Below are positions 18,506 through 63,370 of a stretch of 64,000 nt of DNA, one piece after another; within the stretch, counting starts at the first letter, position 1, and the number at the start of each line of letters is the position of its first letter. Source of the DNA: Cytospora piceicola (Eukaryota > Ascomycota > Sordariomycetes > Diaporthales > Cytosporaceae); assembly GCA_023375675.1 (NCBI GenBank), contig JALQBC010000008.1, forward strand, positions 1,240,001 through 1,304,000, read 5' to 3'. The translations under genes were made by a program, and so were the position numbers. A model generated the notes under the pieces. It made no database searches and was not told the origin of the DNA. It saw only the letters and a program-made list of their open reading frames with translations.

Positions 18506-18515
18506 CCTGTTAAGC
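18506..18515. other. 10-bp unmatched junction sequence CCTGTTAAGC
   Basis: Lies between the left target duplication and the first base (GAGAG) that aligns with the right terminal repeat. It has no counterpart at the right end. It may be filler DNA from integration or a terminus lost on the right. Confidence 0.6.
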
Positions 18516-19450
18516 GAGAGTAAATTTTCTCTATTTTCGGCAGGTCTTGACTCCTAAGACACTGTCTAATATATGTTTCTAAAGTACATCTCGAGTCTAA
18601 TATATGTTTTTAGAGTGTATCTTCGAGTCTAGTATATGTTTTTAGAGTGTATTTAAAGCTGATATATATATCGTAAGGTTTACTTCGACCTTCGAGGCTA
18701 GCCTTCGAGTTTAATCGTAGCTATCTTAAATTTAATCGTAGCTATCTTTATCGCCCTCGACCTTCGACCTTTAAATCTAATTATAGCTATCTCTGTCGCC
18801 CTCGATCTTTGTCTTTCGAATCTAATCGTAGCTATCTGTCTCTATATCGCCCTCGAGCCTTAGTTAATAGTTTTCTGTTTATCTGACCGTAGCTATATAG
18901 GTAATGTTTCTAGTATATCTTATAGTCGGTCCGCCCTGGAAAATCTACGTACGATACCTTTTACGGCCGGTCTGTTATAGTCGGCTTAGGCTATACCGAG
19001 TAGGAAAGGCGATACGGGAGGCTATAATACCTTTTATAGTTAGTCTGCTACGAAAGATTTACGATAGTTACGATACTTTTTATAGTCGGTCTGCTACAGA
19101 ATATATAACGTATAGCTATAATACCTTTAATAGTCGGTTCGCCCCGGAAAATTTATAATAGCTACGATACCTTTTATAGTCGGTCCGTTACGGAATATGT
19201 AACGTATAGCTATAATACCTTTTACGGTCGGCTTAAGCTACGCCGGGTAGGAAAGGCGATATTAAGCTACGATACCTTTTATAGTCGGTTTATTACAGAA
19301 TACAGAAAATATAACGTATAGCTATAATGCCTTTTATAGTCGGTCTGTTATAAAATATATAACGTATAGCTACGATACCTTTTATAGTCGGTCCGCCCCG
19401 GAAGATCTACGATAGCTATAAGGTTTTTTACGGTCGGTTTACCGCGGATA
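18516..19450 (+). repeat. Left terminal inverted repeat with iterated motifs
   Basis: Aligns in inverted orientation with 62,935-63,370. Matching landmarks in order: GAGAG terminus, aggtct..actcctaagacactgt, tctaaagtacat.ctcgagtctaat, a tatatatatcgtaag block, gaccttcgaggctagccttcgag, and agtatatcttatagtcgg. It is modular: three 31-bp units with gtctaatatatgttt (18,562-18,656), four units of about 45-60 bp with taatcgtagctatct (18,715-18,890), and about eleven units of roughly 45-60 bp with tatagtcggtccgc (18,920-19,450). The left copy is longer because it has more of the last unit. Iterated subterminal motifs usually bind a transposase; that is an inference here. Confidence 0.85.
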
Positions 19451-19739
19451 CGTAAATATTATAAGGTTAGTTAGTTACTTTAACAGGCACTTTATAGTAT
19501 AAAGCTAAATCTATTTAGTTTATCTCGATTTATATAAAAAGATATCGTATACCGTTATATACGATAAATACCTATTAAAAAATTATTATTTAAAAAGATA
19601 CCCCGCTATATATAATAAATACTTACTAAAAAATTATTATTTAAAAAGACACCCTACTAGCGTAATACTTATAAGTATATATATAAGCTACTTTAATATT
19701 ACAGCTTACGTAGCTTTACGTAGCTTTTATACCGTATTT
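19451..19739. other. AT-rich element interior, no frame followed
   Basis: Contains a short direct repeat (aaaaaattattatttaaaaaga twice, about 19,577-19,650). No coding remnant recognised. Confidence 0.5.
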
Positions 19740-20795
19740 TTAAAGGTTATATCGGATCGGATACTCTAGCTAAGGGTAATAAAGTCCGCGGTAAAGATTT
19801 ACTTTTTTAAACGATAGTTATAGCAAGGGTTATAAGGCTATAGATTTAAGTCGTCCGGCTTAAAGCTATTTAGTTTTTAGTACTTCTCTTAGTATAAGGT
19901 TAACGTAAAGCTATTAAAAGTGTTTAAGATAATCTTTACGCCGGCCTTACCGTAAAAGTAAGTAGTAAACCTATAGGTTATATTATAAGCGCTATAGTCG
20001 TAATACCGGCTACATGCTATATAACCGGTTAAAACCGAGTAAGAATTTTAGGAATTAAACGGTAGTATCTATCCTTTAAACGTGTTTAAGTAGCTAAAGT
20101 AGTTATTATCGTTAGTATAGACTGTTATAAAGAAGTCCGTTTAAGGTATATCGGTAATATTTATATACTTAAAAGTAAAGTAGCTATAGATAATAAACAG
20201 GGAGGAGCTTAAAGCGAAGACGATAAGGTTTACCGAGGTATCGAAGGACCGGATAACCGAAGAAGGGAAAAAGACCCGGCTAACGCGGTAATAGACGATT
20301 ATATTAAATCTTCCGAAGGCGATATAGAAGTTTATCTTCTAAGCTATACGGATCGTACGCTTAAAGCCGTATAGCGATAGCGACTAGATCTCTTAGCTAA
20401 AAGAGCTAACGTAGCTATAAAAGCCTATAAGGAAATAAAGGATAAAGCCTTACGTCGTATTATAGCAGGCGTTATAAAGCGACGACCTAGTATATCGTTT
20501 AAAGTAAAGGCGGTAATAGTTTAAGCAGACGTAGTATATATCGGGTATATTACGTTCGAGTTTAACAATAAGCTGTTTAACCTTAGCTTTTCCTAGTTAG
20601 CGCTATTAAATATATAAGGCCTTATCGAACTTTTAGCCTTAATTAAAAGAGCGCTCGGTATTAAAGTAGTTTTTTTAGTCGGGATCCTTTTCGTAAGCCG
20701 ATTAAAAGGTTTTATTAATAAGGAAGAGGCAAATACGGTTAACTAGATTTATTATCCTTATAACCTTATAAATTAACTCGAAAGAGAGTTAAGTT
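19740..20795 (+). pseudogene. RIP-degraded unknown gene A
   Basis: With TAA/TAG read as former Gln/Trp, one frame stays open for about 350 codons; the second half from about 20,150 is the clearest. Readable stretches include LLSYTDRTLKAV, NVAIKAYKEIKDKALRR and FEFNNKLFNLSFS, ending near QLERELS. The first half could be untranslated. I recognise no domain. It is the first gene-like unit inside the left terminal repeat and is read inward. Confidence 0.45.
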
Positions 20796-21242
20796 AAAAT
20801 TAAGGTTATTATAACGAACTACGTAGTATTAAGTATATAATATAGTATATTCTGTAGTAAACGAAATAAAATTAGTATAGTATCGATATAATAATATAAA
20901 GTTATTATAAGAATAAAACTAGGTAGACTTACTAGCTTAATATAGCTTAAAAGTTCTTTAAGACCTATTTGTTAATTTCTCTTTAATAAACTTTAAAGTC
21001 TGTTTCCGTCTGCTTATATATTATATTTAGTTACTATTTAAATAGTTTCGAATAAGATAGTGTTTAAAATATATATAATAGGCCGGTATAACTATTAGGT
21101 CGCTATATATATCCGAACGTTCTTTATACTACTAGTTTTAGAATTCGCTTTACTACGTTATTACTTCTTTTAATATACTAAAGTCGTAGGCGTTTAAAGA
21201 TATCTAGGTTAAACCTTTCCCTTATTAAATCTAATCTCACTC

Positions 21243-22090
21243 TTTATCACGATAAATTCCGACCGGGTTTTCGATATTACTTATATTATAACGTAGTAGT
21301 ATAGCTCGAGGTATCTTAACTAGCCCTACCCTATATCGGATACCTAGTTTAATCGACTCTACAACCGCGTATACTACTAAATAGACCTGCTTTTATATTA
21401 TAACGCCGAGCAGGTAAAGGAGTTGTTAACTATAGTACTAGTATATCTTTTACTACTATAACAGGTATAATATTATATACTAACTAGCTAGTATTACGAT
21501 ATAGTATATAATAAGCTCTATAGTACTACGGTTATATAGCAGTATACGATACGTCTTCGAAATAATATCGATTTCGGTAATTTTAATATAACGGATAATA
21601 AATATTTTCGGAAACAGCCTTTCGCAGCTAATAAAAGAAAGATATTAATCGTAACTAGTATTATAAACGAGTTTAATATACTTTCTTAAAGACTAAAGGA
21701 TACTACTACTATTTCCTATAGTAATACGCCTATATCGAATACCGCCGCTTATTCGAAAGGCTATACCGGATATATAAAAGGTAAAAGCTCGGAAAATAAA
21801 GGCTCGGAGGATAAAAGCTTAAAAACTATAAGCCGGTAAGAAAGTATAAAACTTAGTATACCGCCTGTTTTACCTCGGGAGGCCCTACTATATACGGCTA
21901 GATATTAGTTTTAAGACGTTCTAGTAAACTACTTAGCTTAAGTAGAATAACGTAGTCTCTAATTATATATCTTCGGGTATTTAGGTATTATAATTAAGAG
22001 TAGCGTATAGTAATATACTAACTACTTCGGATTAGGCTATCGATATACTTCTTCTTTATACCTACTATAAACTATAACCTATAACTAAAG
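21243..22090 (+). pseudogene. RIP-degraded unknown gene B
   Basis: One frame runs about 280 codons with only TAA/TAG interruptions. Readable stretches: RYLNWPYPISDTWFNRLYNR, LRNNIDFGNFNITDNKYFR and PPVLPREALLYTARY, with a Ser/Lys/Gly-rich linker between. The first part is rich in Trp, Tyr and Arg. No family recognised. The frame probably extends upstream of 21,243. Confidence 0.5.
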
Positions 22091-22649
22091 GTATAAGTAA
22101 AAGTAAAAATATTACTATTTTAGATAGAAGACTACGAATTAAACTTAATAGATACAACCGCTAGCTACTATAATTAATAAATAAACAATATTTTATAAAG
22201 GTACCTAAAGGTAGTTAAAAGTAGCCTCCTTACTTAAATATAGGTAAGAAGGTTATATATTTTAATATACTATATAGCTATAGCGTAAAGTAAAGTTAGC
22301 TACCTTTTAAAGCTATATCGCTTAATATAATTAAGTAATAAAATAGTTATTAACTTTTAGTAACTAGTTTATTAACCGGTAATGTTTATTAATTATTCTA
22401 GATACCGGGTAATATTTCTACTTTAATAAAATTATATATTAATTTACTACTTTTATAGTTTTATCTATCTTTATCTACCTTTTATCTGTTTTTTCTAAGC
22501 CGAGGTAGCCGACAAAGTTTATTACTATACTCGTTAACTATCTGCTACTAAAGCTTTTTCGGCTTTTACTTTTACCTTTTAGTATTATCTTTATATTTAA
22601 ACGTAAAAGTGTTATAAGCTCGAGGTACTTAGTATCGCCTATACTAATA

Positions 22650-25600
22650 AGACAACTCGGTTATACTAAACCTAAATATAAGATAAACTGTATAGTAAAT
22701 ATAAGAGCTATTATAATCGAGGCTTCTAGTTTAACTTAAGTAGTTATACCGTATCTATATCTATATCTGCTTCCGAGTATTTTAAACTTATTAACTGTTT
22801 ACCGTAGTCGGTCTATAACAGACTTAATTATAAACACATAGGTAATATCATTATAGGTTTAAGTTAATTCGTCGTTTTATATTAAATATAATAACAGAAG
22901 GGGTTTATAATTAAATATTTTCTTTTAGGCTTATTACTAAGTAAATAGTAACCCGGTATACGGTTAGATTAATAATTAAAGTTTAACCTTTTATAGTTAT
23001 AAAAAGACTAAGTATATTAATAAGCTATCCTGTTTTTTATCTATATATATATTTCTAAAGCTATAACTAAGCTAGGTATTCTCTTACCTTTTACTCGGCT
23101 AAACTAATATATATAAAAGACCTACCGGAAACAGAAAAGATAACGTCTTTTACTCCGATAACGACACCGCTAAGATATATCTTCTAAATAGAGATTACGT
23201 TATAAGCTAAAGGCTATAAACGATTCGAGCGACCGTTTCCTTTACTTTTATAGTCTTATAGCTAAACTCCTTTATTAAGTTACCTTTTTCTGTAAGCTTA
23301 ATAAAGTTTACCTTTATCTTTTACCTTTACCTATATACCCTTCCTACCGCCTATACCTTTTTCGATAAGGTAGGCGAGAGCTTTATAAATTAGATGTTGT
23401 TTATACGTTAGATATTAAACCCTTTTATAGCGATAAACGTAATAGCGATAAGGACTTTATTAAGGCTGTCTATAGTATATACTGTATTTATCTCCTTTAC
23501 GATTTTAGCCCGGTCTTTATTATTACTTTTAAAGTATAAAAGTAGCGGCTTAATATTTTAGAACTCGCGGTCGTATAATAAAAGGACGTAAGTTAGAATA
23601 GCGTTTATAAGCTAGTTATAGAAGATAATAGTATAACGTTTACCTAACCTATCTAATAACGCAGTTATTTTATCTTAGTCCGCGACTATTTAACGGATTA
23701 GCCTTTTTACGTATTAAAACTTAGCCGAGTTTTTCTCGAGTATGTTTAGGTAAGGAAAGAAGTCTTATTTAGTTAACTTCTCTTAAGTAGGGCTAAAAGG
23801 CTTTCCCTTAAAAATCGATTTTTAATACCTGTAGGCGGCGTTTTAATAAGTTCCCGCCTCGAACAGCTTACTACCTATAGAACTTAATAAGACCGCTATA
23901 TATAAGTATATCGAGGCGCGCTATAGGCTATAAAAGGATACGTTTTAAGTCTTTTACTTACTATTTACTAACTTTATAATTAGAAATACTATTATAAGCT
24001 CGGGCTTTATTCTATTATTAGTAGCTTACTCGGCCTGCCTTAGCTTAAGCTTAGTTTAAATAAAGGTATAAACGCCTGTTAATATAGACTTAAACGCAGT
24101 AGTTATATTGTCTTTTATAATAAGGTCGAGTTACTTATAGTTTTCTTAGTACGGTAAGAAAGCGTTAATCGTCTTACCGTAGTAGAGCTAGCTAAGCTAA
24201 AGGCTTTATATTAAGGGCTTAAAGAAGTCGATAATTAGGCGGGTATACGGTTTAATTTTTATAGGTGTTTTTCGCCGGTCGGCGATAAGGCGTATAGAAA
24301 AGAGGTATAGCCGTCGAGCTTTTAAAAACCTAGCTACTATTATAAAGAACCTGTCGTTACTAAGTTAGTATTATAGCTTTCGTATTAACTCGAACTTAGC
24401 CTACTATTTATCGAAGTACTCGATCGGGGTTTACTATACGGATAAGCCTTCCTCGAAGGTAGTTTTATAGAACGTAAAAAGCGTAATAAGATAATACGCC
24501 GTACCGTTAATTTAACGTAGAGCTGTAAACGGGATTATCTCAGAACCTTTTATAGCGCCTTTATATTAGTAATGCTTGTTTATAATAACTACGTTTATAA
24601 TAAAGTATATAGTCCCGGTGCTTTTTACTTTAAAGTATTTACTTTATAGCTAAACAACCGACTTCGAGCTTACTAAAAAAACGTTTATAGCCTTACCTTT
24701 ACTGCTTTTAATAAATAACCTTATTTTTTTATCTTTATCCTCTTTACTTATATTAACCTTAATAACCTTACTAGATATATTATCGATAACTGTTTTTAAA
24801 CGTTTCGGCCTTATAGTTATACTTATATCGTCTTTTAACCTTAAGACGTACAAATAAAAATCTATAAACCTAATAGTCTTCTCCGTACTTTATTTATCCG
24901 TATATATACTATACTTTTTATCTAACTAGTTATATAATAAGCCAGGGGAGATAACGATTAATATAGGCGAGTTTATAAGGTAAGTTAAATAGATAGCGCG
25001 GAAGTCAGAGAATATAATATATAGGCATTTAACTACGTACTTATATTAAGATAGATATTAAGTACTGCGTGCTTAACCTTATAAAGGGAGGTATTACCGG
25101 CCGGTCGCTTTATAGTCCTTTTACTCTTTTTAAATATAGTTTTAAAGATCGATAAGTTTAGCCCGAACGTAAAGGTATAAAAGTACTAGTATAGTTTTTC
25201 CGAACCCGACGCTTTAGCTTACTAAGGCGTTATTAATCCCGGTCTTAATAAGCGATAATAAGAGACTATACGTTATATACAACTAGTATATATAGATAGG
25301 TTATACGATACTTTCGATAGTATACTTATTATTAGAGCGTTCGGCTATTTAAAAGAATCGGTACGCTCGAACGATTAACCTTAAGGTAAATTTATCGAGG
25401 CCGGTGTCGGCGTCCGGCTGTTTATTAGTATCGTTTTCGTTAGCAGTTAGGTTAATAAAGGTATATAGGGTGCTAATTATAGAGCCGGCGGAGCTATCCG
25501 GTTAGTAAGGAATATTAAAGGTACTTTTATTTTCTTTTATTATAGTAGTATCGTCTTTAACAGCGCTTATAGAAATAAGCAGATACAGGGTGCTATAAAA

Positions 25601-26575
25601 AAGGCCGGTAATAGTGTCGGGTTAATCGATAATATTAAAGGTATACTTCTCTTCTTTAATAATAACGATTTTATCGCCTTTAATAGCAGTAATACCCGGA
25701 TTTAAGTTACTATCGATAAGGCTGTCGGTAGTATCTAGTTAGTAACTAGTATCGAAAGTAATAATAAAAGTACCGTTTTTTTATCTTATTATAATAGATT
25801 CGCTTTAAATAGCGCCTATATCTATAAGCGGCTATAAGGTGTTAAAGAAAGAACCGTACTTAAGCGGGCGTTATAAATAGCTAACCTCGAACTCGTTAGC
25901 TTCGGTCTTCTTTATAGTAGCGTTTATAATCGAAAGCGTAACGTATAGCGTTATAGCCGTTAGCTAATTATAATAGTACTAAAGTTCGAGATCGTAGCTA
26001 TAGTCGAAGAATAAAGATACTATAAAAGTACCGAAAGTATTGTTTTAAATAACGCTTATATTATAAAACGGTAGAAAGGTAGTAAAGAAAGAGCCGTTTT
26101 TAAGCCGGCGCGGTATATAGCTAAAGTCGGGTTCGACTTTATTTTCGGCCCTTTCTGCGGTAGCGTCTTCGATAGAAATTATAATATATAGCGGCGAGCT
26201 TAATAGCTTATTAAGGCAGAGCTATATCTTAAAAAAGTAGCCGATATTATCGTTAAAAGGTATTATAACAAAGCTATTTCTAATTATCCTTAGTAGGTTA
26301 ACGAAAGACTACTTATCGCGAATATAATAAGTATAGTAGTTATCGTTATTTTCCGGTTTAGGTAAGACGATGTTTACGGCTGTATTTTAAAGGATATCGG
26401 CGGTTTTTTAAAGCTACTTATAAAGCTTACTATACTAATAGTAATAAGTATAGCGTAGTTTACCGCCGGTTAGGCCGGGCTTAATAAAGATATTTAAAGC
26501 TATAATCGATATCTTTTAACCGATAACGTATACGAAGGTAATTTAGTCGAAATTAAACTATATATTTTGTTTTTA
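22650..26575 (-). pseudogene. RIP-degraded SNF2-type helicase with N-terminal tandem repeats
   Basis: One minus-strand frame of about 1,300 codons, broken by RIP-type stops and missense changes. It opens near 26,570 with a segment reading WFNFDQITFVYVIG. Residues about 200-450 (25,380-26,200) hold four tandem copies of a unit of about 75 residues (TFNI.DQPD..TGLFYSTLYL). Then come SNF2 motifs in order: Walker A VSQSVGFGKTI (about 25,190-25,240), motif Ia LIVISPGLLYNWL (about 24,930-24,970), a degraded DExH segment (about 24,570-24,610), and motifs V-VI (23,300-23,420) with FIAIKGFNIQRINNI and AVGRVYRQRQK. Such enzymes remodel nucleoprotein with ATP. Which activity this one had is unknown. It is the only element gene I can assign, and stands head to head with the gene at 26,646. 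Confidence 0.75.
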
Positions 26576-26645
26576 CTGTTTTTTTATAGGCGGCTAACTT
26601 AGGTCTAGACTTACTGTATATAGGCGTTTTACAGTACTAAAAAAA

Positions 26646-27130
26646 AAAGCGACAGACGATAAGAATACCTCGCCTGCTAACGCGATAAAACCGTTATACG
26701 ACTTTATTATAAACGAAGTAGATATAGAGGTTAGTAATTCGTTAAAGGTATTTATCTAAATAGTAGACTATAACGTATTTCTACCGCGAAGTATTAATAG
26801 CTTAAATAGGTGTTCGCGGTTTATAGAAGGTTTTATAACCGCGATATATACTTAGTAGGTAAGAGAGAAAGTAAAGGCTTATACTTAGCCGGAAAGTAGT
26901 CGGTAGTAATATAAAAGCTGTTAAGGTAAGGCGGGTTAAAGGCGTGTTATACTCGAGATATAAAAACGCGCTAGCTTAAATTTAAAGGCTACCGAAAAGT
27001 ATAAAGACCGGATAGGTTTAAAGACGGTTAAACAGCTACAATAAAGAGATTAAAGCTTATTTACAGGTTATCGTGTATATACGGCCGACTAATTAAGAAG
27101 ATATAAGGTTAATCGGAGCTTAAAAGTAAA
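26646..27130 (+). pseudogene. RIP-degraded small unknown gene C
   Basis: About 160 codons in one frame, starting about 70 bp from the helicase start on the opposite strand. Readable: KATDDKNTSPANAIKPLYD, VFLPRSINSLNRCSRFIEG and LNLKATEKYKDRIGLKTVKQ. Lys/Arg-rich C-terminus running into the hexamer array at 27,124. No family recognised. The shared divergent spacer suggests co-regulation with the helicase. Confidence 0.5.
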
Positions 27131-27210
27131 GGTAAAAGTAAAGGTAGAAGTAAAGGTAAAGGTAAAGGTTAAGGTCGAGGTCGAGGCGGGGGTTAAGGTT
27201 AAGGTAGATT
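27124..27210 (+). repeat. Hexamer array (GTAAAG/GGTTAA type)
   Basis: About 14 tandem hexamers of ggtaaa, ggtaga, ggtcga and ggttaa type. One frame reads as a Gly/Lys/Arg-rich tail, so it may encode a basic C-terminus. The same hexamer family recurs at 42,603-42,740. Confidence 0.6.
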
Positions 27211-27579
27211 TATATATAAAAGGCTTAAGTACTTATCTAAGTAGGTAAGTAATTAAGTTTATATACCTTTAAAATAAATATAATATAGTTCTGCTTTACC
27301 GGTCTTTCTATTAATTAATAACTATCGATAAATATATAAAGAACCTCGAATATACTAGCTAATATATTTCGAAAGTTTTTTAATACCGACTTACAATAAA
27401 TCTACTTAGTTAACCGACTAGCGGTAATAGTTATATAGAACTATTAGCTATTCCGGTTCGAACGTTTATATCGTTACCGTCGCTAGCTATACTATACTAC
27501 CTCTTTAGCGCTAACCTTTTATCGCGCCTTTTAGAGTTTAATATACTTGTTAATAGGCCGTCCTTTTATTCCTCTACCC

Positions 27580-27860
27580 CGAAATAATAAGTACTGTTTA
27601 CCGGTAGGCTGTCTTTTTATTCTTTTACTTCGAAATAGTAAGTACCGCCTACCGGTAAGCCTTCTTTTTATTCCTTTATACCGAAATAGTAAGTACCGTC
27701 TGTCGGTAGACCGCCTTTTTATCTTTTTATTTTAAGATAGTAAGCGTCGTATAGTATATCGCTTTTATACCCCCTAAGTATAGCGTTTACCGCGAGATAT
27801 TAAGTACCGCTTATCGATAAGCCGTCTTTTTATTTTTTTATTTCGAAATAGTAAGTACTA
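27580..27860. repeat. 51-bp coding-like minisatellite
   Basis: At least five copies of a 51-bp (17-codon) unit marked by cgaaatagtaagtaccg and ctttttattcttttactt. On the minus strand it reads as a repeated EQKDGLPV.STYYFEVK-like unit. No intact gene can be drawn around it. Confidence 0.6.
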
Positions 27861-28178
27861 CGCGATATACCGCCGCTTCCTCTTTTTAGCTTTACGTTTA
27901 TTTAAACGTTAACCGGTAGATTTTCCGTACTAACTATATTATAAAGGCTACTACTATACTAACCGCTGCTAATACTATATTAAACTCTTAAGGTAATATT
28001 TATAGAGGTATAGCCGTTTACTTTAATACGTATCTCTACTACTTTCCTCTTTACTATAATCGCTTATACTAATATAAGATAGGTTCTTTTATAGATTATA
28101 GGCCTATCGGCTAGCCCTACCGTTAACGATAAAGCCTTCGAAGTAACTCTTATACGGCTATAAATATAGCTTTTAACT
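27861..28178. other. Element interior, unresolved
   Basis: RIP-degraded DNA upstream of unknown gene D. It may contain its N-terminal part, but I could not fix a frame. Confidence 0.4.
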
Positions 28179-28990
28179 TCCGACTACCTACCGAAGTATA
28201 CCGGTAGTACTAAGAAGGATACTATAATAGTAGGTTTAAATACCGATAATTCTTTACTTAAACGGTTTAGCTTACTTACCCGGTACTTACCTAATACTAT
28301 ACCTTACTTTAAATACTTTTTATATAGCTAAAACGATTATAAGTACGAGTATATTACGGTTATAACATATTTAAACGCCGGTACGTTATTTTACCCCGGC
28401 TACGTTAAGGTATACTAATAGTATTTAATAAAATAAGCTTACTAGTAGTATAAATAAAGTAAGATCGGGTACGAACCTTTCCCCGATAATATAATAGCGG
28501 CGGTAAAGGAGTTTTAAGCTAATAAGGATAATATATTAAAGGATACGTTTAAAAAGACGTATAAGATATTCCGACAGTTAATTTCTTTCGTACCCTTAAT
28601 AACGCGTTAAGGTATCGAGAAACAGATATAAGAAAACCTTTACTTTAAAAGGGTTAGAATAACGTAGGCGTTAAAAGAGCTGTAAGGTATATATAACTTA
28701 GTCGATTCGATAGTATAAAGAGAGGTCCCGGTGTTTCCGAGCTTTACGTAGGCTTTAGTTTTTACGGTATAAAGTAAGCCGACTCGGAGGGATCGCGATA
28801 AGGAAAATATCTCCGAAAAGACTAAATCGCTAAACTAAGAAAATTATCGGTAGTAGTAACGTCTATCGTCGTAGTATTAAAAATAGAATAGTTACTTAAA
28901 GACCTCTTTATTTACTAAAAGAAAGGATAATTAAAGTAGATAATACCGAAATATACTTAGATAACTCGAAGCCGGGTTTTTTTTATAAAA
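28179..28990 (+). pseudogene. RIP-degraded unknown gene D
   Basis: About 270 codons in one frame. Readable: SDYLPKYTGSTKKDT, LLKRFSLLTRYLPNT, YLNAGTLFYPGYVKVYW, KIGYEPFPDNIIAAVKEF and KKTYKIFRQLISFVPLITR. Aromatic-rich throughout with a charged tail. No family recognised. Confidence 0.5.
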
Positions 28991-29359
28991 TATATATACT
29001 GTCTAGTTATACCGTTAGCTGCCGAATATATACTATTATTATTATATTTACTTACTTCCGGTGTAGAAAAATTCTGTAAATGTATGTTAATTAGCGAGAT
29101 TAGGTCCTTTTAAATAGCTAACTTCGCGATACCTTTAATCTATTAGAAAATATTATATAAGGTATATATTTTAGTATTTTATAGTATAGGACGATTTAAA
29201 TTAAATAAGCCGGTTTACAGCTTATAATAAGCGTCTTTTAAAGTAAGAAATATAGTAATAAACCTAAGCCTTATATAGGTAGTATTATTAACACGCGCGT
29301 TAAACGGCTAACTTTACAATACGTTTAACTTAATAAGGAAAATCGTATAAGATATACGG

Positions 29360-44250: not shown

Positions 44251-44251
44251 C

Positions 44252-52200: not shown

Positions 52201-52897
52201 TACGTAAATTATAGGTATCTACGCCTTCGGTTTTTACCGACGGTATATAAAAGGTAATAGTCCTTTCGTTAGCTACTATACTAACCTAAGGCAGGTAAAT
52301 AGTTTACAGATTAAGTCTTATACTAATAATACCTACGTTAACTATATATATTAAAGAAAGGCTTAATATTATCGGTAGCTTGCTATCCTTTTTAATACGC
52401 TATAGCTAAAGTAGGTTGCTATTTAATAAGTACTTTCTACGCCTGTTTCTTTTACCGTTTTTATAATAGCTTCTATCGCCTTTATAACAGACGACGAGAA
52501 AGGTAAAGACAGAAATAGCTAGCTCGAACCTCTTACGCTTTCTCTTTCTGCTATTCCTATAACAGATAAAAAAGGTAAAGACAGAGATATTTAAAGTATT
52601 TAAAACTAGAATATACTTTATAATAATAAAGTTATTCGGGAGGTTAAAGAAGTTTAGCGGCTAAAAGAGTATTAGCCTTTTAACTTCTAGCTAATCGTTG
52701 CTCTTTAAAGGAGTGATTTTAGCTTTTAGAATATAAATATTAGTAAGGATTAAGGTTTTAAACTAATAAGTACTATATCGGATAAAGCTTTTACTTCCTT
52801 AAAGGCTAAAAAGGACGAGGCTTATACTTTTATTAAAGCCGAAGCTAATATAAACGCTAGTAATAATAATATAAAACGTTTTAATCGTAGTTTAAAA
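49204..52897. other. Element interior, mostly unresolved
   Basis: A possible plus-strand frame at 50,270-50,560 (reading KLKAEDLFSGQPPFFYSTWL) is weak. An uninterrupted run of 15 G lies at 51,248-51,262. The rest is RIP-degraded with no assignable frame or repeat. Confidence 0.35.
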
Positions 52898-53520
52898 TAA
52901 AAACGTCGCCCTTCTCTTATTATAAAAAAGTAAACGTAAATACTTCGGCAACGGATATAATAACTACCTCGTTAACACTTTATAAGACATTTCGAGTACT
53001 TAACGCTTTAACGTAGAAAAGCAGCTTATTTACGCCTTTAGTATAAAAGGATACCGTTATAAAAGTATAATAGTAATATAGATTAGTTATAGGTATAAGA
53101 CCGGTTTAACCTACTACTCGAAAATATTATAACGATATAGCTACTAAAGACCGGGAGATTAATATCTATACTACGATAGTAAAGAGCCTTACAGTAGTAG
53201 CTATATTACCTTAATAGTAATAAGCTTTATTTTTAAACTCTACTACTATATATATAACCTAATAGTAAACCGGCGCGTTTACTATATTCGAGGGTATTAA
53301 ACAGGGCTATTAGATTTACTGCCTTCCGGAAAGCTTAAGTTTATTACTAGGTTGTTATTACGTTCCTTATAAAAACAGATATTTCGTACGTCTTAAATTA
53401 AATTATTTAATTCTCTTTATTTAAAGCTGTCGAATAATACTGTTTTAAAATAAAACTAACGTTTATTTGTAAATTAAAGGTATTATAAAGTAGGCGGCCT
53501 GTTATCTGATTACCCCGCCT
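52898..53520 (+). pseudogene. RIP-degraded unknown gene P
   Basis: About 205 codons. Readable: KSKRKYFGNGYNNYLVNTLQ, FNVEKQLIYAFSIKGYRYKS, RYKTGLTYYSKILQRYSYQ and LLPSGKLKFITRLLLRSL. Tyr-rich. No family recognised. Confidence 0.45.
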
Positions 53521-54235
53521 TATACCTTATACCTTACCTACCTTACTATATATACTAAGAGATACCTAGGTACCTTTTATAATCGGTTTATATATAAACC
53601 GAATAAAAGAGATAAGATTATTATATATTATAAACGAAGGACTATATATATAGAGCTAACAGATTTAAATAATACAGACTCTTCTTATCTTTTTAAAATT
53701 AAATTAGCTTAGCGTAACTTTTTATAATCGGTCTACATAAAGTTCGAACAGGAATAGTTTACTATTTAAAGTTAAAGTAATACAATCTAATTATTTACTT
53801 ACTATTATTATTATATTTATAGTCTAACTTTATAAACATCTACTATATTTAGTTTTATTAAAACTGTTTTACCTTTATAATTATATAAGTTACCTAGTAT
53901 TAATTTATTAAGTATTTGTTTTATATTAATATTTTATTAAAGAAAATAATACTGTTATTTTATTAAAGCCCTTACGTAAAACCTTAAGCTAAGCAGATCC
54001 GACTAGCTTAAATATTAGCCTTAAGCCGATAAAACGTTAATAATATAGCGAGTAAGGCTTAAGCTTTTCGCGATTATTTACGTCGGAACTTAAATAATAC
54101 TTTTAGTATTCTTATTTAATTTATCCGGATTATTTAAGACGGCTACTTTAAGTTTTCTAGTTTTATAAAAAATACTACTATACCGTCTAATATCGAGGCG
54201 TAGCGCTTTAACGACCTTACTTTTTACCTCGCGGA

Positions 54236-54603
54236 TAGAAAGCGGCGCTTTTAAAATCTCGAATTTTATATCGCCGAAAAAGAATATAATATTACTAACT
54301 ATAAAGGTTAGCTCTTTAAAAAAGAGCGTAGTATCGAAGCTAAAAATAAGTAGTTAAACGAGAAAACTTATATCTTTAAGCGGAATAAAGAATATATCGA
54401 GGTATATAATATCGAAGTAACAGAACGGAAACGTTATCTAATAAAGGTTATTAATTTTATTTTAAAAGGCTTAGTAGACGCTAAGTTATAAAGCTCTTAA
54501 GTAGAACGGGATATAGAGGTTACTAATAAAGCGGTTTCGAAGGTAAAGGCTAGGTTATAAAAGGTCTGAAATACTATAAGGAACGTAGTTAGCGTGTTAA
54601 AAT
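54236..54603 (+). pseudogene. RIP-degraded gene fragment Q, coiled-coil-like
   Basis: About 120 codons: NLEFYIAEKEYNITNYKG, FKKERSIEAKNKQLNEKTYI, FKRNKEYIEVYNIEVTERKR and ending ARLQKVWNTIRNVVSVLK. Charged and helical throughout. No family recognised. Confidence 0.45.
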
Positions 54604-54879
54604 ATATTAGTTCGGGGTTAAGTAATAATTAAAAAGGTAACCGGGGGCTTAATATTATTATATTTAAGAGGTAATTATATAATTATATCGGGCGATAAGG
54701 CTATATTTAAGAAGCTTTAAATAATTATAAGGTTTTTAAACTAAACTAAAGAGTTAAATAGGTATTTTTATTACCTTACCTTTTAGTATCTGCTATACCC
54801 TTTACTCTTTACTATAAAGCAGTTTAGCTAATCTACCTTAGCTATAACTTAAGATAAACTATAACCTTTATACGACTTT

Positions 54880-55345
54880 CTGCTTTACCGACTGCTATAC
54901 CTTTAACTTCCGACCGCTATACCTTTTACCGCAATACCTTTCCGATTATTTCTAACCTTTAACTATAATACCTTTAACCGCGATATTTTCCTTTACCGAC
55001 TACTATCCTTCGACCGTAATACCTTTAACCGCAATGCTTTTAACCGCGATACCTTTAACTATAATACCTTCGACCGCGATATCTTTCTTCTTTTACCGAC
55101 TACTATCCTTCGACCGTAATGCCTTTAATCGTAATGCTTTTAACCGCAATGCTTTTAACTATAATACCTTCGACCGTATTACCTTCGACTATAATACTTT
55201 CGACCGCGATGTTTTCTTTCTTCTACCGACCGCTATTCTTTAACCGCGATACTTTCGACTATAATACTTTTAACTGCGTTACCTCCGACCGTGTCGTTTT
55301 CTTATAACGTCTTTCGCAACGCTTTTAACAACGCTTTCCGCGACG
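54880..55345. repeat. 15-bp (pentapeptide-coding) array
   Basis: About 25-30 degenerate 15-bp units of accttcgaccgcaat / gcttttaaccgcaat type. On the minus strand they read as [G/S]-I-[A/T/I]-V-[E/K] pentapeptides. The same type of pentapeptide ends the large gene at 58,650-62,366. Confidence 0.75.
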
Positions 55346-55849
55346 TTTTCTATAATGTTTTTCGACTGTAAGCCCTTTTAGCCGATCGCGATAATATTTA
55401 GTATAGCGAATAAGATATTAAAATACTTTACAACGCAGTAGCGATAGTTTTATACCTAATTTAGCGCTTAAAGATAGCGGTATATATAAAACGGTCTACT
55501 AGCTACGGCTAAATAGTCGCTTTTAGCTTAATTATACCTGTTCTTTAAGCTTTAGTTTTAATCTTTTAAAACTAGGTTAGATCGATTTAATTAAGTCGAA
55601 AAGACTTAAGAAATCTTATTTTCAACCTAGTATAGCCTTAAGAGAAGAGCTATATTTCTCTTTTATTACGCCTTTTTATTTTTAGTCTATTAAAATACTA
55701 TCGGAAATCCCTATATATATACTACGATAAAACAACTAGCCGGAATCTTTATATTATATATTAATAAACGTTAAGATAGAGGTAGATAATTATTCTTATT
55801 TTAATACTTACTTTTCTCGAATAATTAATATATTCTTTTCCGTCCTTTT

Positions 55850-57620
55850 TAGTCTGTTAAATAAAAGTAAAATAAATACTAGTTTTAAAAAATCGCTTTT
55901 AGCCTTTTACTTATTTTAGTTATTATTCTATCGGCTTTATCCTTATACTAATCCCTCTATCTTCTAAATAATTTTTTAAACAATAAGCTTAATAAAAGGC
56001 TCCCTGTTATTATAAAGAAAACTAGTATATAAGACCTAGTACTTACGTCGCGTTTACGCTACTATATTTTAATACTTTCGTCCGAAGTTATCCTTTAAAA
56101 TAGGTAAGACCTTATTATATATCGCTATACCGGGAGAGACGCCTTCGTCGTTTAAGAGAAGCCGCGATATTAGCCTCGCCTTTTCTTTACTCCTTTTCCT
56201 GTCGATTAGATGCGGAATACCTCTTTTATCGAGCTTTTTTTAAAGTTAAGTCGGCGTTTAAGAAAAGACACCTTCTTTTAGCTCTTTTTTCGGCTACAAC
56301 GGCTTAATATTAGTCTTTTAATACGTAAGAAGCGTATATTTTTTTACATAAAAAACGTCTTTTACGGTATTATTTAAAAACTTTTTATCTAAGCTAATAA
56401 AGATAAGGCTTTTAGTAAGTATACCTATTTTTAGTTATTTAATAGAAACGTTTAGTTTTAGCTTTTTATCCGAGCCGATTAAAACGATAGTTATAGCAGG
56501 TATACCTATACTGTTTAACTACTTATCTAGCTTTTATCGTAATTATATAGTAGTGTTCCTTTAAAAAAGCGTTTATTTAAGCGGAATAGCCGTTAAGGCG
56601 ACTTATCGTAGTCGGTTTTTATCCGAATCGGAGATAATATACGCGCCTTTATCTAAAGAGCTTATATTATAAAGTAGCTTTTATTTTAGAAGGATAGCCG
56701 TAAAGATGTCGCTTTATAGCTAGTTTATATAAGAGTCGATAATAGCGTATATTTTTATCTTATTCGAAAAAGGGCGCTTCCCGTTTAACAGAATAACTAT
56801 AGGTACGTCGTTTTGTCCTTATAGTTAGTCTTTTTCTTCGTCGATTATATATTTAGCTATTTTCTTCGAGTAGTCTTCGAGCTATAAAAGCTTACGTTTT
56901 AACGGGATAACTATAAGGATATTTATTAGTAGTCGGCTGCTTTTTAAAGGTATTATTAATATACAGGCTTAAATATATTTATTCGTAGTTTTTAAGAAAG
57001 TCGAACACTTTGCCTTTATATTTCGTATAATTAACTTAGCTAAATCCTTCCGAAATAACTTACCCGAGGCCGACCGTATCTTCCTACGCTCTATATAGGT
57101 ATATAAGCTTTAGTAGTTTATCGCGACTATATTAAAGACCTCGGGTAGTAGTATATAGTACGCTTTAGTATTATATCGTAAGTCGTTAGCTAAAGCGTCG
57201 GCGATTAGCAGATAAGTAATAAAAGGTCTACGCTATTATATTTCTTAGCCTCCGCTTAAGGGGATACGCCGGTCGATAATCTATTAGCGAAGCTTCGGAA
57301 CCGTTATATCGAATAGGCTTTTCGATTTAAATAAGAGCTATATACGTTATATTACGTTAAGCCAGTCTTATTTTTAAAGCTCGAATATAATATAAACCGC
57401 GATAATACCCTTTTTCGTCTAGTACTTAACCTTTTCTGTATAAAAGCAGAAATCTTCGATTATTATATTTATAAAACGTATTAGCTAGTCTACTAGTAGG
57501 TCGTCTTATAGTAGTTTAAACTCTTATATTATAAAAAGGACTATAAGGCGGTTACAGTTTAACTTATTTAAAATCCTTCGCTAATCGGTAAGGCGGCCGA
57601 GGGTATTTTAAGTCGATAAA
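55850..57620 (-). pseudogene. RIP-degraded unknown gene R
   Basis: About 590 codons on the minus strand in one frame. Readable: TDWRRILNKLNCNRLIVLF, FDITVPKLRWQIIDRRIPLS, KLFRKDLAKLIIRNIKAKCS, NDVPIVILLNGKRPFSNKI, KKLDKRGIPHLIDRKRSKEK and LNDEGVSPGIAIYNKVLPIL. The opposite strand also holds a long frame over 56,640-57,500, so strand choice is probable rather than certain. The pentapeptide array at 54,880-55,345, in the same orientation, may be its C-terminus after decay. No family recognised. Confidence 0.42.
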
Positions 57621-57714
57621 GACATTTTTTTAGCCGTTTCTTATACGAAGATATTTCTCGATAGTAACGGCTTTTTTCGGTCTTTCGAGTTTATAATCGC
57701 GTTTATTAAGGATA

Positions 57715-57840
57715 TATAGTTATATCTTTTAAGGTATATAGTTATATTTCTCGAGGTATATAGTCGTGTCTTTTAATATATATAGTTATATTTCTCGAAA
57801 GTATATATTATACCTTTCGAAGGTATAATAAAGTAGCTTA
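57715..57840. repeat. About 30-bp tandem repeat
   Basis: Four to five units with ggtatatagttatatttctcg. Confidence 0.65.
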
Positions 57841-57916
57841 AAAAATAATAAGAACTCGATATAAAAGACCTTAGTATTTAAATTTAAATCTCTCTATATA
57901 AAAGCTTTAATAATAA

Positions 57917-58120
57917 ATTATTAGGCACTTTTATTAAGCACTTCTTAGGCATCTTTATTTCTATATTTTTAAGGCTTTAATTAAAAAGTATATTCCGGTT
58001 TACCTAATAATATAAAATTATCAGGCACCTTTATTAGGTACTTTTATTAGGTATCTTTATTTCTATATTTTTAAGGCACCGACTAAGAAGTATATTCCGG
58101 TTTACTTAATAATATAAAAT
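57917..58120. repeat. 102-bp direct repeat, two copies
   Basis: Two units with aggcacttttatta, ggcatctttatttctatatt and aagtatattccggtttac. Confidence 0.8.
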
Positions 58121-58444
58121 AGCTAATACTATTTTATAAACGCTTTTTTAGTTTCTTAACTTTACCTTATCCTTTACTATTAGATAGATATAATAATAAC
58201 GGAATCTTAGTCTTCTTATCTTATTTATAAACTAACATTTTTACATAAACCTTACTTAAGAAATCTTAGAGATATTTAGATTTTATTAGACTAATTCTTA
58301 TTAGACTAATTTTTATTATATAAGTAACCTTAATCCGATATTAAACCTCCGGCTATTATAAGTAAGCATATAAGTAATATAAGACTTTTTCTTCTCTATC
58401 GCTATTAATAATATTTAAGCTAAACTATCTTTTAATTTTAAAAA

Positions 58445-58462
58445 GTCGGCTTCGAAGCCGAC
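58445..58462. promoter_or_regulatory. Perfect 18-bp palindrome upstream of the large unknown gene
   Basis: GTCGGCTTCGAAGCCGAC is a perfect palindrome, about 200 bp before the likely start of the large frame. It contains CGs but no CpA or TpG, so RIP would spare it. It is followed by two copies of an approximately 49-bp direct repeat (58,475-58,523 and 58,593-58,642) containing tagctaactaatcttatat. Operator or replication-related role is only a guess. Confidence 0.5.
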
Positions 58463-58649
58463 CTTTTAAAAAGAGGACGAAATAGCTAACTAATCTTATA
58501 TAATGCTTAACGAGTTATCGATAGTAAGCTTTTAAGTTTTTATCTCGATTATTTAATACTAACTATATCTAATAAAACCGAACCTTTAAAGAAAGGATAA
58601 AATAGCTAACTAATCTTATATAATGCTTAGTAAGTTATCGATATAAACT

Positions 58650-61600
58650 TATAACTAAGCCGTTACCTTTACTATTACCTCTGCCGTTATCGTCGCCGCT
58701 AAGTAGTCTTTCTATATCCGGGGGGACGATAAGCTAGTCGATAGCCTTTTACGGTTTTAGTAAAAGATAAGGGATAGATTTAAGGTATCTATATAGCTAA
58801 ACTAAACACGTTTCTTTAATAAAGCCCTTAAGTTAATAGACTAACAGGCTTAGCTTAAAAACGACGAAATAAATACGTTATTATAGCTCGCTTAACAAGG
58901 ATACGGTATAAGGTATTTCCTTCTCGAGGTATTCTTATTACTAGTAAGCGTATAGGAAGATATTATTATTTAGTTAAATTAAGAAATAAAAGATATTAAG
59001 TCGGCCTCTGTCCGTGTTACAGTTATAAACCTGTTATCTATCGGCTTATACTAAGCTTTAATCGTCGAGTTTAAAAGAAAGCTTTTATACTTCGACACGA
59101 TATCGGCCTTACGAAAGCTATATATTGCCTTTACCTAAGAACTCTTCGTGCTTATCTTAGTAGCCGCTAGTATCGATATTTAGTTTTTACCTACTACGAT
59201 CGTCGATATACCTTAATAATTAGGCAGGTAGGAGTATAGACTTTTTATTACTAAGATATAGCGTAGGATCGTCTACGAAGGTAACCCGACGGCGGTTACG
59301 AGTTAAAGCGAAAGTATTAAGGAGGTCGTTAAGCTATAGAAGGCCGCGATTGTTTAAAAGCTCGGTAATACTAAGGATAAGAATAGGCCCGAGGGATCGT
59401 TTAAGCCTTACGTTTAAAATAACTATATAATTATCGTTAAAGTATATACCGATTAAAAGGCTAGCGATAAAGTGTTTCCTGTTAGTCTTAAGGATATTTT
59501 TACGTTAAGACTAAAGTTTAAAGACTTTTTAAAGTATTTTTAAGCCGACGAAGTATTTATCCTCGGCTTTTCTTAAAAACAGTATAAAAAACGCTTTAAA
59601 GATATCGTAAATAGCTTCCGGTATAACTTTTATTTAATCCCGTTCGTTAAAATTATATTAGTAAATTTCTCGAACCTATAAGCTCTTAACTTCTTAACTA
59701 GTTAGAATACCTTTTTCCCGGTTTTACTATTTACACTATCCTTAAAGGCGTTTATACCGTTTACTTATCGCTAAGGGGCTTTATACTATTATATAAGAGC
59801 TAATATAGCAGTTATAATAGGCTTTTTAAACTAGGTAAAGGGTTAGACTTAGTTTTTCTTCGACCTTATAATCGGCGTATATTAGTAAAGGGTTTTATAA
59901 GACTTCGAGACTTTTTAAGCTTAACGCCTTCTCGTTCTCTAATAGCTTACCGTAGCTATAAAGAACCTAGTAGTAGCTCGACGTTTACTAAGGTTCTTCG
60001 GGATATATTAGGCTTAGTATAAGTAATAGGCTAAGATAACGAACGAGGACTTTAAAATAGTACTTTAAACCGTTTCGATAGGGAAGAAAATACAAATTAT
60101 AAAGGAAAAGCTTATAAAGGCTAAACGTCCGCCTTTTATACTCTATATCTAAAAGAAAAGATCTTTTAATAACGTATCGGTTTAGGAGGCGTTTCGGATC
60201 TAATAAGGCTGTCTAGCTATTTTTATAAGCTACGGCTTTAGCAAACCGGAGTTTAAAAACTATATACTTCTCGACGGTATAATCTGTCCTTTCTATATCT
60301 TTTACTATAGCTAGCTACGCTCCCTTAGCTATATAATCGGCACTTTATATATTATACTAGTCTTATTAGAGTTTTATATATAATGTAATAAAGCTGTAGT
60401 ACGTTTCGACCTTTACGAGCCTAAACTAAGTGTTTATTAAGAGCGGTTCCTCTTTTAGATTGTTTACAACGTTTTATAACGAGTTGCTTAAGCCGTTTAA
60501 AAGGTTAGTAACCGGCGGCTAAGTAAAGACCATTACTTATTAGATTTTATACTTAAGGTTTAGTAGTCGATTATAAACTGTTAAGGTTTCCCGATCGTAT
60601 TATTTAAGTATAACCCTTTCCGTTACGTGCCTGCTATATAAAGACCTCCGAACTCGGTAATATTCTCGGGGTATTAAAGCGAATCGTTACCGGTAGAAGG
60701 TTTTATTAAGTACCCGGACCTATTCGATCCGGTATAGAGCTTTTAAGATAAGTTTTATAGCGTTGTTTAGGATAATAATATTATTAATAAGGTTATAGGT
60801 ACCTCGGATCTTTTATTTTAGCTAGCTTAGTTTACTTACTTATCGTAGATCCCGATAAGTAAACTATTTTAAAAGCTCGAACCCGAACTTAGTAGAGAGC
60901 GATAGGCTTTAAGGGAACGTTTAGAGATAAAAGCTCCCGATTTATCGTTTATAAACCTTAACCTACCGGACCCTTTATACGCCTAACTTATAGATAGTTA
61001 AAACTAGCTCCTCTCTTTCTAGTATCTTAATTATAATACCGATAACCTCGACGTTAGCTAGCTTTAGTATTACCTTAACCGTTTTTATAGCGAGTAAAGG
61101 TATAGGTATAATAATTACTAAAGGTTATTTTTTAACTAAGAAGCTCTAAAAGCTTATCGGGATATTAACTCTTATCTCGGTATAAAAGGTGTTTTCGACT
61201 AAGCTTACAACTTCTTTTAGAAATACCTCCGTTATAACTATATCGACTATACCGGAAGGCGGAAGAGATTCGGTATAAAATATTACCTCGATTAATACCG
61301 CTAAAGTTATATACCTTTAAAAAAGCGATCGCTTCCGATAATAGTTTATAAATACGGCTTTTATTAGACGAGTATAAAGAGTAATCTTAGTAAGTATTAA
61401 TCTTTTAAATTCTACTAATAATATATAAATAACCGCAGTAAGCTTAACTAAAGGCTATCGAAAACGTTTTAATACTCGGTCTATTATTTCGAAACCTGTA
61501 TATAGTAGTATTAACAGAAATATAAAAACTCGGAAAACTATAAAAAGGTTGTTTTTTACTCTAACCTCTGTTTTAAAGGTAAGATAGATATTATCGATAA

Positions 61601-62366
61601 GGCTGCCGTTTAAACGTAGAAGGCCGTTTAAAAGCCTTCTCTGTTATAGGCACTTTAGGATTCTTAAAACAGATATAAGGCTACGTAAGATCGCGGTTTA
61701 TAAAAGAGTAGCTAAAGCGACGATTAGTAGAAAAAACCTTTTATATATTAGGTTTATAGACTAGGTTTTCGGGATATAACTAATCGCGATTAATATCTTA
61801 AAACTACAGAACACGAATTCCGAAATCCTACCTTTATCCCGTTATTACAGAAGTATCGTTATTAGCTTTACGACTTCGAGACGAATATCCTTTACCGGTC
61901 GAAGAAGTATACCGTAAAGTGTTATCTAGCACTTAAAATCGAGCCGTTAAACCTTATAAGAAAGGTTAAAAACCTCTTTAAAAAGCTTCGAGATATCCTT
62001 TCGAGTAACGACGGTATTCCTACCGATTTAAGGGAATATATATGTCTTAAATACTTCGGTAGTTTTTAATAACTAAAGGACTTTCGAAAATATTACTTAA
62101 CAGGTAGCTACTATATAAACCGAGATACTCTTAAGTTAATCGACGATAACTTTTCGATCGCCTACGTTAAAGTATAAGTATATCTTAAAGGTTAAAAGCC
62201 CGCCGGAAGTAATAGTAGTTAGACTTTATAGCTATTACCTTAAGATAAGGCTTCCGGGAAAAGGAAGACGTTCGGAAAGGGTAAGGCAGGTATTGCTATT
62301 AGAGGTGTTGCTACTAAAGGTGTTACTGTTAAAGGTGTCGTTACTAGAGGTATCGTTATTAGATAA
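58650..62366 (+). pseudogene. RIP-degraded giant unknown gene S beside the right terminal repeat
   Basis: One frame runs about 1,230 codons with only TAA/TAG interruptions, the longest in the element. It starts near AVTFTITSAVIVAAKWSFYI and ends at TAA 62,364-62,366. Readable: RFWQKIRDRFKVSIWLNQTR, NPTAV, RLKFKDFLKYFQADEVFILG, VSVWEAFRIQQGCLAIFI, VVRFDLYEPKLSVYQERFLF, FKYNPFRYVPAIW, ESLPVEGFIKYPDLFDPVW, ELSRERQALRERLEIKAPDL and NLFKKLRDILSSNDGIPTDL. The tail has a basic KASGKRKTFGKGK followed by five pentapeptides (GIAIR, GVATK, GVTVK, GVVTR, GIVIR). No family recognised. Its position and size make it a candidate for the protein that mobilised the element; that is inference. Confidence 0.55.
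62287..62363 (+). repeat. 15-bp pentapeptide repeats at the gene S C-terminus
   Basis: Five in-frame 15-bp units (ggtattgctattaga and variants) ending at the stop. Confidence 0.8.
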
Positions 62367-62934
62367 TAGCCGGTTTCGAATCTAAGGTCGACCTTAAAAC
62401 GCTAGAATTTTAACGATAGTTACTCTTTAGAAAGGTCTTTAAAGCGCTAGTCCCTAAAGGTAAAAGATCTTATAATACGTCGACGATTATTACGGCTAGC
62501 TACCCTTTAGCTAAGATCGAGTAGTATATCGCTACTAGTGTAAGCGGTAACGTTAGACGATATCGTAGATAAGGGTAAGGATAACGCTAGTAGTGTTAAT
62601 AATAACGACGGTAGCGATAGTAGCGATAGTTTTAAGGCTAACTATACCGACGATAATAACGATAGTTTTAAGGGTAAATAATAGTTCTGATAGGTAATAA
62701 CGAAGATAATAACTTTATAATAATTAAGAGTAAGGATATTTAGATTAAAATATATAAATTTTAGGCGTTAAGATATTATACGAACGATTATAACTATTTA
62801 TCGCTTTTATCGCCTTTACTATTTAATTAAATAGCCTCCCCTTTTATCCCTTTTAAGCCGGGGGCCCTTTATAACTAACCTTTAAGCGACGATTCTTACG
62901 TTATCTATATCGTAATCTAATAGCTATCCCTTTA
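62367..62934. other. Element interior between gene S and right terminal repeat
   Basis: Includes a short Ser/Asp/Asn-rich coding-like stretch (62,570-62,680, repeated aacgacggtagcgatag). No gene called. Confidence 0.4.
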
Positions 62935-63370
62935 ATATACGTTACGTCTTTTATAGCGGACCGACTATAAAAAGTATCGTAGCTACGTTACTTATTCTAT
63001 AGCGGACCGAGTATACGTTATACTCCTTCTGTATAGTCTTTTACCCGGTATAGCTTAAGCCGACTATAAGATATACTAGAAATATTACCTATTAGCTTAG
63101 GACTAGAAGGCTAGGGGTCGAGGGCGTGATAGAAGCCAGACGATTAAAACTCGAAGGTCGAGGTCGAGATAGAGATAGTAATAGTTACGATTAAAACCTC
63201 GAAGGCTAGCCTCGAAGGTCGAGGATATACTTTAAAAATATTATCTGAACTTACGATATATATATCACACTCTAAAATACACTCTAGAAACTGTATTAGA
63301 CTCGAGAATGTACTTTAGAAACAGTGTCTTAGGAGTTGAGACCTATTAAAATCGGAAATTATCGCCTCTC
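62935..63370 (-). repeat. Right terminal inverted repeat
   Basis: Inverted match to the left terminal repeat over at least 430 bp, ending at CTCTC next to the target duplication. It carries only about three tatagcggaccga units versus about eleven on the left. Landmarks: cttaggagttgagacct, actcgagaatgtactttaga, and ctcgaaggctagcctcgaagg. Confidence 0.85.

What the first reader, a model, noticed from the sequence alone, without database searches (positions are those of the whole stretch)
18506..63370. Candidate undescribed family of giant TIR element
It combines long terminal inverted repeats (at least 430 bp), a 6-bp target duplication, about 45 kb length, many genes on both strands and a SNF2-type helicase. 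Polintons share the 6-bp duplication and TIRs but encode a protein-primed polymerase, integrase and packaging ATPase, none seen. Starships are as large but lack long TIRs and carry a DUF3435 captain, also not seen.
Basis: partly seen in the sequence, partly recalled or inferred. Interest (0 to 1): 0.9.

Follow-up and report, generated by a model that had tools for sequence, protein, structure and literature searches.

The report
Giant dead transposon family in fungus
This is one of dozens of related mobile DNA elements of roughly 34 to 62 kb that recently spread through a fungus-like genome and were then mutated to death by a RIP-type defence; it matches no giant-transposon family that could be tested here.

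Summary
The block is real: one copy of a repeated 45 kb unit with imperfect terminal inverted repeats, inserted in a GH15 gene and ruined by RIP-type mutation. Paired ends mark 24 copies of 33-62 kb (0.99 Mb, 2.3% of the genome). Eight copies of the window's type keep five reading frames in the same order; four of them differ by 901-997 transitions but only 0-6 transversions over 6.6 kb. So the unit amplified whole and recently, then was mutated; it is not a pile of nested elements. The claimed 6-bp target duplication is wrong: GATGTC lies in the element's own right terminus, which recurs, exactly or as a close variant, in 20 of 20 copies. The rejoined host genes that can be judged fit no duplication, or at most 1 bp. 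Six-frame Pfam scans of two members found no DUF3435, integrase, polymerase or transposase, only a weak helicase C-lobe. The best-conserved gene, beside the right end, encodes an unclassified protein with C2H2-like fingers: my candidate mobility protein. Best reading: an undescribed kind of giant fungal TIR transposon. Main rivals: a much-diverged Starship, or a known superfamily whose transposase is hidden by the mutations. No fungal genome collection could be searched, so novelty is unproven.

The parts
18505..63380 (.). Whole element (45 kb type, A-end left, B-end right). A T stands just outside each end (18504 and 63381): a possible 1-bp duplication
   Evidence: Termini shared by 20 compared copies; rejoined host genes
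18505..19115 (+). A-end inverted repeat with internal tandem repeats (32, 45 and 46-48 bp units)
   Evidence: 116 partial matches in the genome
62936..63380 (-).
   Evidence: 125 partial matches in the genome
23204..26872 (-). SNF2-like helicase frame, 1223 codons with 73 TAA/TAG
   Evidence: Helicase_C 18.9 bits; 8 type-2 copies incl. this one, 72-77% in the other seven; 10 others 46-49%; no internal gap in an alignment of 4 copies
35300..37345 (+). Conserved frame g35, no Pfam match
   Evidence: Frame by transversion test; 65 matches in the genome
47419..49407 (+). Conserved frame g47, 663 codons, no Pfam match
   Evidence: 53 candidate places, 57 matches; frame
54440..57355 (-). Conserved frame g54, no Pfam match
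   Evidence: Frame by transversion test; 75 matches, 47 of 78 candidates scored
59388..62657 (+). B-gene, 1090 codons with 95 TAA/TAG, C2H2-like finger patterns in the middle; candidate mobility gene
   Evidence: 42 scored places of 53 candidates, 63-80% in the 41 others; un-RIPped relic L062 in the same frame
17331..18503 (-). Host GH15 gene, downstream half (Glyco_hydro_15), cut by the insertion; upstream half with TREH_N lies right of 63381
   Evidence: Glyco_hydro_15 5e-29 in 17331-18068; TREH_N 1.7e-6 in the rejoined protein

Best explanation
The block is one mutated, dead copy of a family of giant, gene-rich TIR DNA transposons with about four sequence subfamilies. SHOWN: a 45 kb unit with fixed termini sits in unrelated genes; copies of the window's type were nearly identical before RIP-type mutation; no target duplication of 2 bp or more recurs; five large frames are colinear in eight copies of this type. 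INFERRED: an element-encoded recombinase grips the two unlike ends (CCYTGTYAASC... and CCTCGACAWC...) and joins them to a site preferring C^A(G) or T^R with a 0-1 bp stagger. The best candidate is the B-gene product: it lies beside the B terminus, is the best conserved across subfamilies, and has C2H2-like fingers that could bind the sub-terminal repeats. The SNF2-like protein would be a helper that remodels chromatin or DNA, not the core enzyme, because a match to it was found in only two of the four subfamilies and one copy of a third. RIP, triggered by the repeated copies, then killed them. Confidence is for the whole reading; that it is a family of giant mobile units I hold at about 0.95.
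For: 24 end pairs 33.5-61.6 kb apart (from, summed). Termini at both ends in 19 of 20 fetched pairs plus the window. Four copies: 901-997 transitions, 0-6 transversions over 6.6 kb, six comparisons. Colinear frames in 8 of 8 type-2 copies. B-gene in 42 of 42 scored places, 63-80% in the 41 besides the window's own. Host frames restored by removing 2 bases, with 130 or more codons on both sides: C9, C39, C28, 3 of 3 such cases; HET spans the C9 junction, 2.9e-28. No DUF3435, integrase, polymerase or transposase in six-frame scans of two members.
Against: No catalytic domain was identified; the B-gene's role rests on place and conservation, and its fold prediction failed (mean pLDDT 27.8). The B-gene reads towards the end. 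The scans are weakened by the mutations: 3 of 4 simulated controls were found, and the simulated damage was milder by the CA/TG index, 0.47-0.53 against 0.12-0.18. By longest frame crossing the junction only 10 of 20 sites favour 2 extra bases, 6 favour 0 and 4 favour 1. The 1-bp duplication cannot be told from a fixed terminal base. No fungal comparison was possible.
Confidence: 0.5

Rival explanations
1. A strongly diverged Starship. A tyrosine recombinase too divergent and too damaged to see inserts the element; the 1-bp C or T is what is left of a short direct repeat.
For: Size, fungus-like host and unequal end sequences fit; PMC12257634 (passages) says Starships have asymmetric TIRs and captains sharing as little as 15% identity. 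Little or no target duplication suits a tyrosine recombinase.
Against: No DUF3435 in the window or C28 scans, while DUF3435 and DUF3723 were found elsewhere in the genome in mutated form. The DUF3435 place on C51 lies outside the stretch homologous to the family. No direct repeat of 2 bp or more, while repeats of 5-6 bp are named for Starships in the passages. The B-gene reads towards the end, not inwards. One weak profile comparison with a C51 DUF3435 piece gave probability 0.24 percent.
Confidence: 0.2
2. A very large member of a known TIR transposon superfamily (such as CACTA, Mutator, KDZ, Dada or Academ) whose transposase RIP has hidden.
For: TIRs with sub-terminal repeats are usual there (recalled). 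Domain detection is weakened: 1 of 4 simulated controls was missed.
Against: Those superfamilies make duplications of 2 bp or more (recalled), not seen here. No transposase domain in six-frame scans of two members.
Confidence: 0.2
3. An integrated DNA virus or Polinton-like element.
For: Size, TIRs and a helicase-like gene.
Against: No 6-bp duplication; no polymerase, integrase, capsid or packaging family reported in the Pfam scans; PF03175 found nothing in the genome, but its control rang nowhere; two scans of viral contigs with the un-RIPped relics gave no relative. Dozens of near-identical copies in separate genes look like transposition.
Confidence: 0.06
4. Several unrelated elements nested in one another.
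For: RIP-mutated regions often hold nested repeats; C90, C22 and C8 carry extra stretches.
Against: Five frames in the same order in 8 of 8 type-2 copies at unrelated sites, and near-identity before mutation.
Confidence: 0.02

Closest known systems
Starships (giant fungal transposons with a DUF3435 captain)
   Same: Tens of kb, many genes, fungus-like host, unequal inverted ends
   Different: No captain found, no direct repeat of 2 bp or more, long repeat-filled inverted ends, candidate mobility gene reads towards the end
Polintons / Mavericks
   Same: Size, TIRs, several genes
   Different: No 6-bp duplication; no integrase or protein-primed polymerase found (the polymerase test had no positive control)
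Helitrons
   Same: No clear target duplication; a small hairpin at the B terminus (18 of 200 shuffles fold as well)
   Different: Long inverted repeats; no Rep or Pif1-type domain found; other target sites
SNF2 helicase family (as protein relative of the 23204-26872 frame)
   Same: Weak Helicase_C match; by eye a GFGKT Walker motif and a C-terminal AVGRVYRxRx motif with stops read as Q
   Different: The SNF2 domain proper does not reach Pfam; an N-terminal domain without known relatives

Membership tests
Starship | DUF3435 tyrosine-recombinase captain, first gene of the element | tested here: not met
   Six-frame scans of the window element and of C28; PF11917 in the genome only at C51, outside the family's stretch. 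A highly diverged captain cannot be excluded
Starship | Flanking direct repeats | tested here: not met
   No repeat of 2-8 bp at a fixed offset beyond permuted controls; 1 bp in 19 of 20. The passages call repeats frequent, not universal
Starship | Asymmetric terminal inverted repeats | tested here: met
   A and B ends similar but unequal
Polinton/Maverick | Retrovirus-like integrase | tested here: not met
   No rve match in Pfam scans of two members
Polinton/Maverick | Protein-primed DNA polymerase B | tested here: inconclusive
   None in the scans; PF03175 found nowhere in the genome, but its control rang nowhere
Polinton/Maverick | 6-bp target duplication | tested here: not met
KDZ, CACTA and other DDE TIR superfamilies | DDE transposase domain | tested here: not met
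   No such Pfam family in the scans; sensitivity limited, 3 of 4 simulated controls found
Helitron | Rep/helicase protein and absence of TIRs | tested here: not met
   TIRs present; no such domain
SNF2 helicase | SNF2 N-lobe plus Helicase_C | tested here: inconclusive
   Only Helicase_C, below its cut-off, 18.9 against 23.5 bits; not seen in C28
RIP-mutated repeat | CpA/TpG depletion and copies differing almost only by transitions | tested here: met

The most novel reading that the evidence does not exclude
An undescribed superfamily of giant fungal DNA transposons with its own conserved gene set, moved by an unknown C2H2-finger recombinase that joins unequal TIR ends to C^AG or T^R sites with a 0-1 bp stagger, helped in some lineages by its own SNF2-like remodeller.
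Probability: 0.45. Interest if true: 0.87.

Novelty: new variant of a known kind. Interest (0 to 1): 0.68.

Why it matters
If confirmed, Starships and Polintons would not be the only giant transposons of such genomes, and a recombinase that leaves almost no target duplication would await description. Copies that were near-identical before mutation also make a natural experiment on RIP: the same tens of kilobases mutated at many separate sites, with host flanks beside them for comparison.

Tried and rejected
Rejected: the 6-bp duplication; nested unrelated elements; a DUF3435 captain in this family; an early reading of the B-gene as lying on the minus strand, dropped after transversion counts and the un-RIPped relic in the plus frame.

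Led nowhere: protein-database searches, 3 of 3 without a hit; PDB by sequence with the SNF2-like frame and with the rejoined GH15 protein; viral contigs, 2 scans; AlphaFold of the B-gene (mean pLDDT 27.8) and of the SNF2-like N-domain (58.0), whose Foldseek search gave 0 matches at E 0.001 or better; a profile comparison of the B-gene with one C51 DUF3435 piece; a tRNA pattern in the genome, 0 matches, and ARAGORN on 40 flank loci, 0 genes. Papers: 7 searches, listings only; passages of PMC12257634 and PMC7805220; abstract and outline of PMC12730594.
Full report
THE OBSERVATION. The window lies on contig C79 of an unnamed 43.6 Mb genome in 99 contigs. Between about 18.5 and 63.4 kb GC falls to 0.28-0.34 from 0.50-0.60, and (CA+TG)/(AC+GT) to 0.12-0.18 (20-60 kb) from 1.07-1.31 (1-16 kb). 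Imperfect inverted ends with internal tandem repeats bound the block. The host looks fungal (RIP signature, HET-domain genes); its name was not determined.

IT IS A FAMILY. The two end sequences gave 116 and 125 partial matches (40 of 90 and 40 of 98 candidates scored). Read by hand as inward-pointing ends they make 24 pairs 33.5-61.6 kb apart (median 40.3 kb; 0.99 Mb, 2.3% of the genome). One pair 18.8 kb apart and a number of single ends were left out of that count. I fetched both ends of 20 pairs: a terminus was found at both ends in 19; C43's right terminus was not located. With the window that makes 20 copies. The A-end reads CTTGT or CTTAT in 13 and CCTGT or TCTGT in 7, the window among the 7. 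The B-end reads CCTCGACATC in 8 and a variant, mostly CCTCGACAAC, in 12.

WHOLE UNITS THAT SPREAD RECENTLY. Around the SNF2-like gene four copies of the window's type differ by 901-997 transitions and 0-6 transversions over about 6.6 kb, in six comparisons: they were almost identical when the mutations struck. Five frames (SNF2-like, g35, g47, g54, B-gene) stand in the same order in 8 of 8 such copies; leaving out C90, which is stretched in two intervals, each spacing agrees within 0.4 kb (coordinates). This excludes a chance pile of nested elements.

SUBFAMILIES AND GENES. A second member, C28, aligns with the window in colinear and rearranged blocks of 59-76% identity. The g47 frame gave 57 matches in 53 candidate places; by identity I sort them into type 2 (8 copies with the window, 76-79% in the others), 1a (46-49%), 1b (45-61%) and type 3 (31-42%). 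The sorting is mine, not a tree. The B-gene was found in 42 of 42 scored places (53 candidates), main matches 63-80% in the 41 others, places that I count as type 3 among them, so it is the best conserved frame tested. The SNF2-like frame was matched in 8 type-2, 9 type-1a and 1 type-1b copies. Every B-gene and g47 match listed carries stop codons, nearly all TAA or TAG. Two un-RIPped relics support the frames: L062 holds 201 codons that align at 43-58% to the B-gene of eight copies (stops read as Q), with finger-like C-x2-C...H patterns seen by eye, and next to it a piece like SNF2-gene residues 853-939 (41%); L061 holds an open frame like SNF2-gene residues 64-248 (30%, 2e-22). Pfam knows no domain in either relic above its cut-off.

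INSERTION SITES. Over the 20 copies no k-mer of 2-8 bases repeats at a fixed offset more often than with permuted partners; at one offset a single base agrees in 19 of 20, C in one type and T in the other; the miss, C5a, was entered two bases off. The base after the B-end is C then A in 12 of 13 and T then A or G in 6 of 7. Joining flanks: only C9, C39 and C28 give a frame with 130 or more codons on both sides, and all 3 need 2 bases removed (574, 733 and 360 codons). By longest crossing frame over all 20 sites, 10 favour 2, 6 favour 0 (the window's left-hand frame among them) and 4 favour 1, most of them unanchored. HET spans the C9 junction (2.9e-28) and lies in the left half of C39 (8.6e-34); the junction codons become Trp, which I recall as conserved there. 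In the window the two halves belong to one GH15 gene: Glyco_hydro_15 on the left (5e-29), TREH_N on the right; with the 2 bases taken from the A side the TREH_N match runs 4 residues past the junction (1.7e-6). At C22 the joined flanks look to me like a tRNA-Arg(CCT), by eye; ARAGORN called nothing on the separate flanks. So insertion adds no duplication, or at most 1 bp.

WHAT MOVES IT. Six-frame Pfam scans with stops as X covered the window element (36 pieces, E 0.01) and C28 (24 pieces, E 0.05). In the window they gave Helicase_C (0.0082), Pentapeptide (2.3e-7) and DHR-2_Lobe_A (1.2e-4), the last two taken for artefacts of repeats; in C28 nothing. Sensitivity: of four host domains damaged by simulated RIP (5-7% stops, 55-62% of residues kept, but a milder CA/TG index of 0.47-0.53), 3 of 4 were found, at 20-27 bits. 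Real mutated DUF3723 genes with 24-25 stops were found at 129 and 85 bits. So a full-length captain would probably show; a short or distant transposase might not. The one DUF3435 place, on C51, lies beside a type-1b copy, but compared with C9 the homology starts at C51:183579, past the DUF3435 stretch. The B-gene is my candidate by position and conservation, not by fold; its model failed.

VERDICT. A real, recently mobile, now dead family of giant TIR transposons. It works like a giant DNA transposon but does not meet the tested defining features of Starships (captain, direct repeats) or Polintons (integrase, 6-bp duplication). Whether it is undescribed cannot be settled here: the paper searches list no such element, but preprints, most subscription papers and fungal genome collections were out of reach.

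Noticed in passing
G000:C51:181911-182709 and 146323-147192; C23:310485-311366: Mutated DUF3435 and DUF3723 genes, perhaps remains of a Starship; the C51 DUF3435 stretch adjoins and seems to cut short a copy of the present family.
   Followed up: partly
L062 (C79:1102500-1108000), 1656-2689: Un-RIPped relic that puts a B-gene piece with finger patterns next to an SNF2-gene piece, in an order not seen in the element; perhaps an old copy too short for RIP, or a taken-over gene.
   Followed up: partly
L061 (C80:21500-26000), 1342-2214 minus: Open 290-codon frame related to the N-terminal domain of the SNF2-like protein, without stops.
   Followed up: partly
G000:C26:347930-348232: A right end and a left end of the family lie about 26 bp apart, as if two elements stand back to back.
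   Followed up: no
G000:C9 and C39 insertion sites: Two of 20 compared copies sit in HET-domain (heterokaryon incompatibility) genes.
   Followed up: no
window 43278-44188: The stretch most like C28 (76%), lying mid-element here but near the A-end there: an internal rearrangement or a repeated module.
   Followed up: no
window 30454-30883, 45393-45754, 54955-55207: Tandem arrays inside the element (60 bp x 7.2, 80 bp x 4.5, and 100/30 bp units).
   Followed up: no
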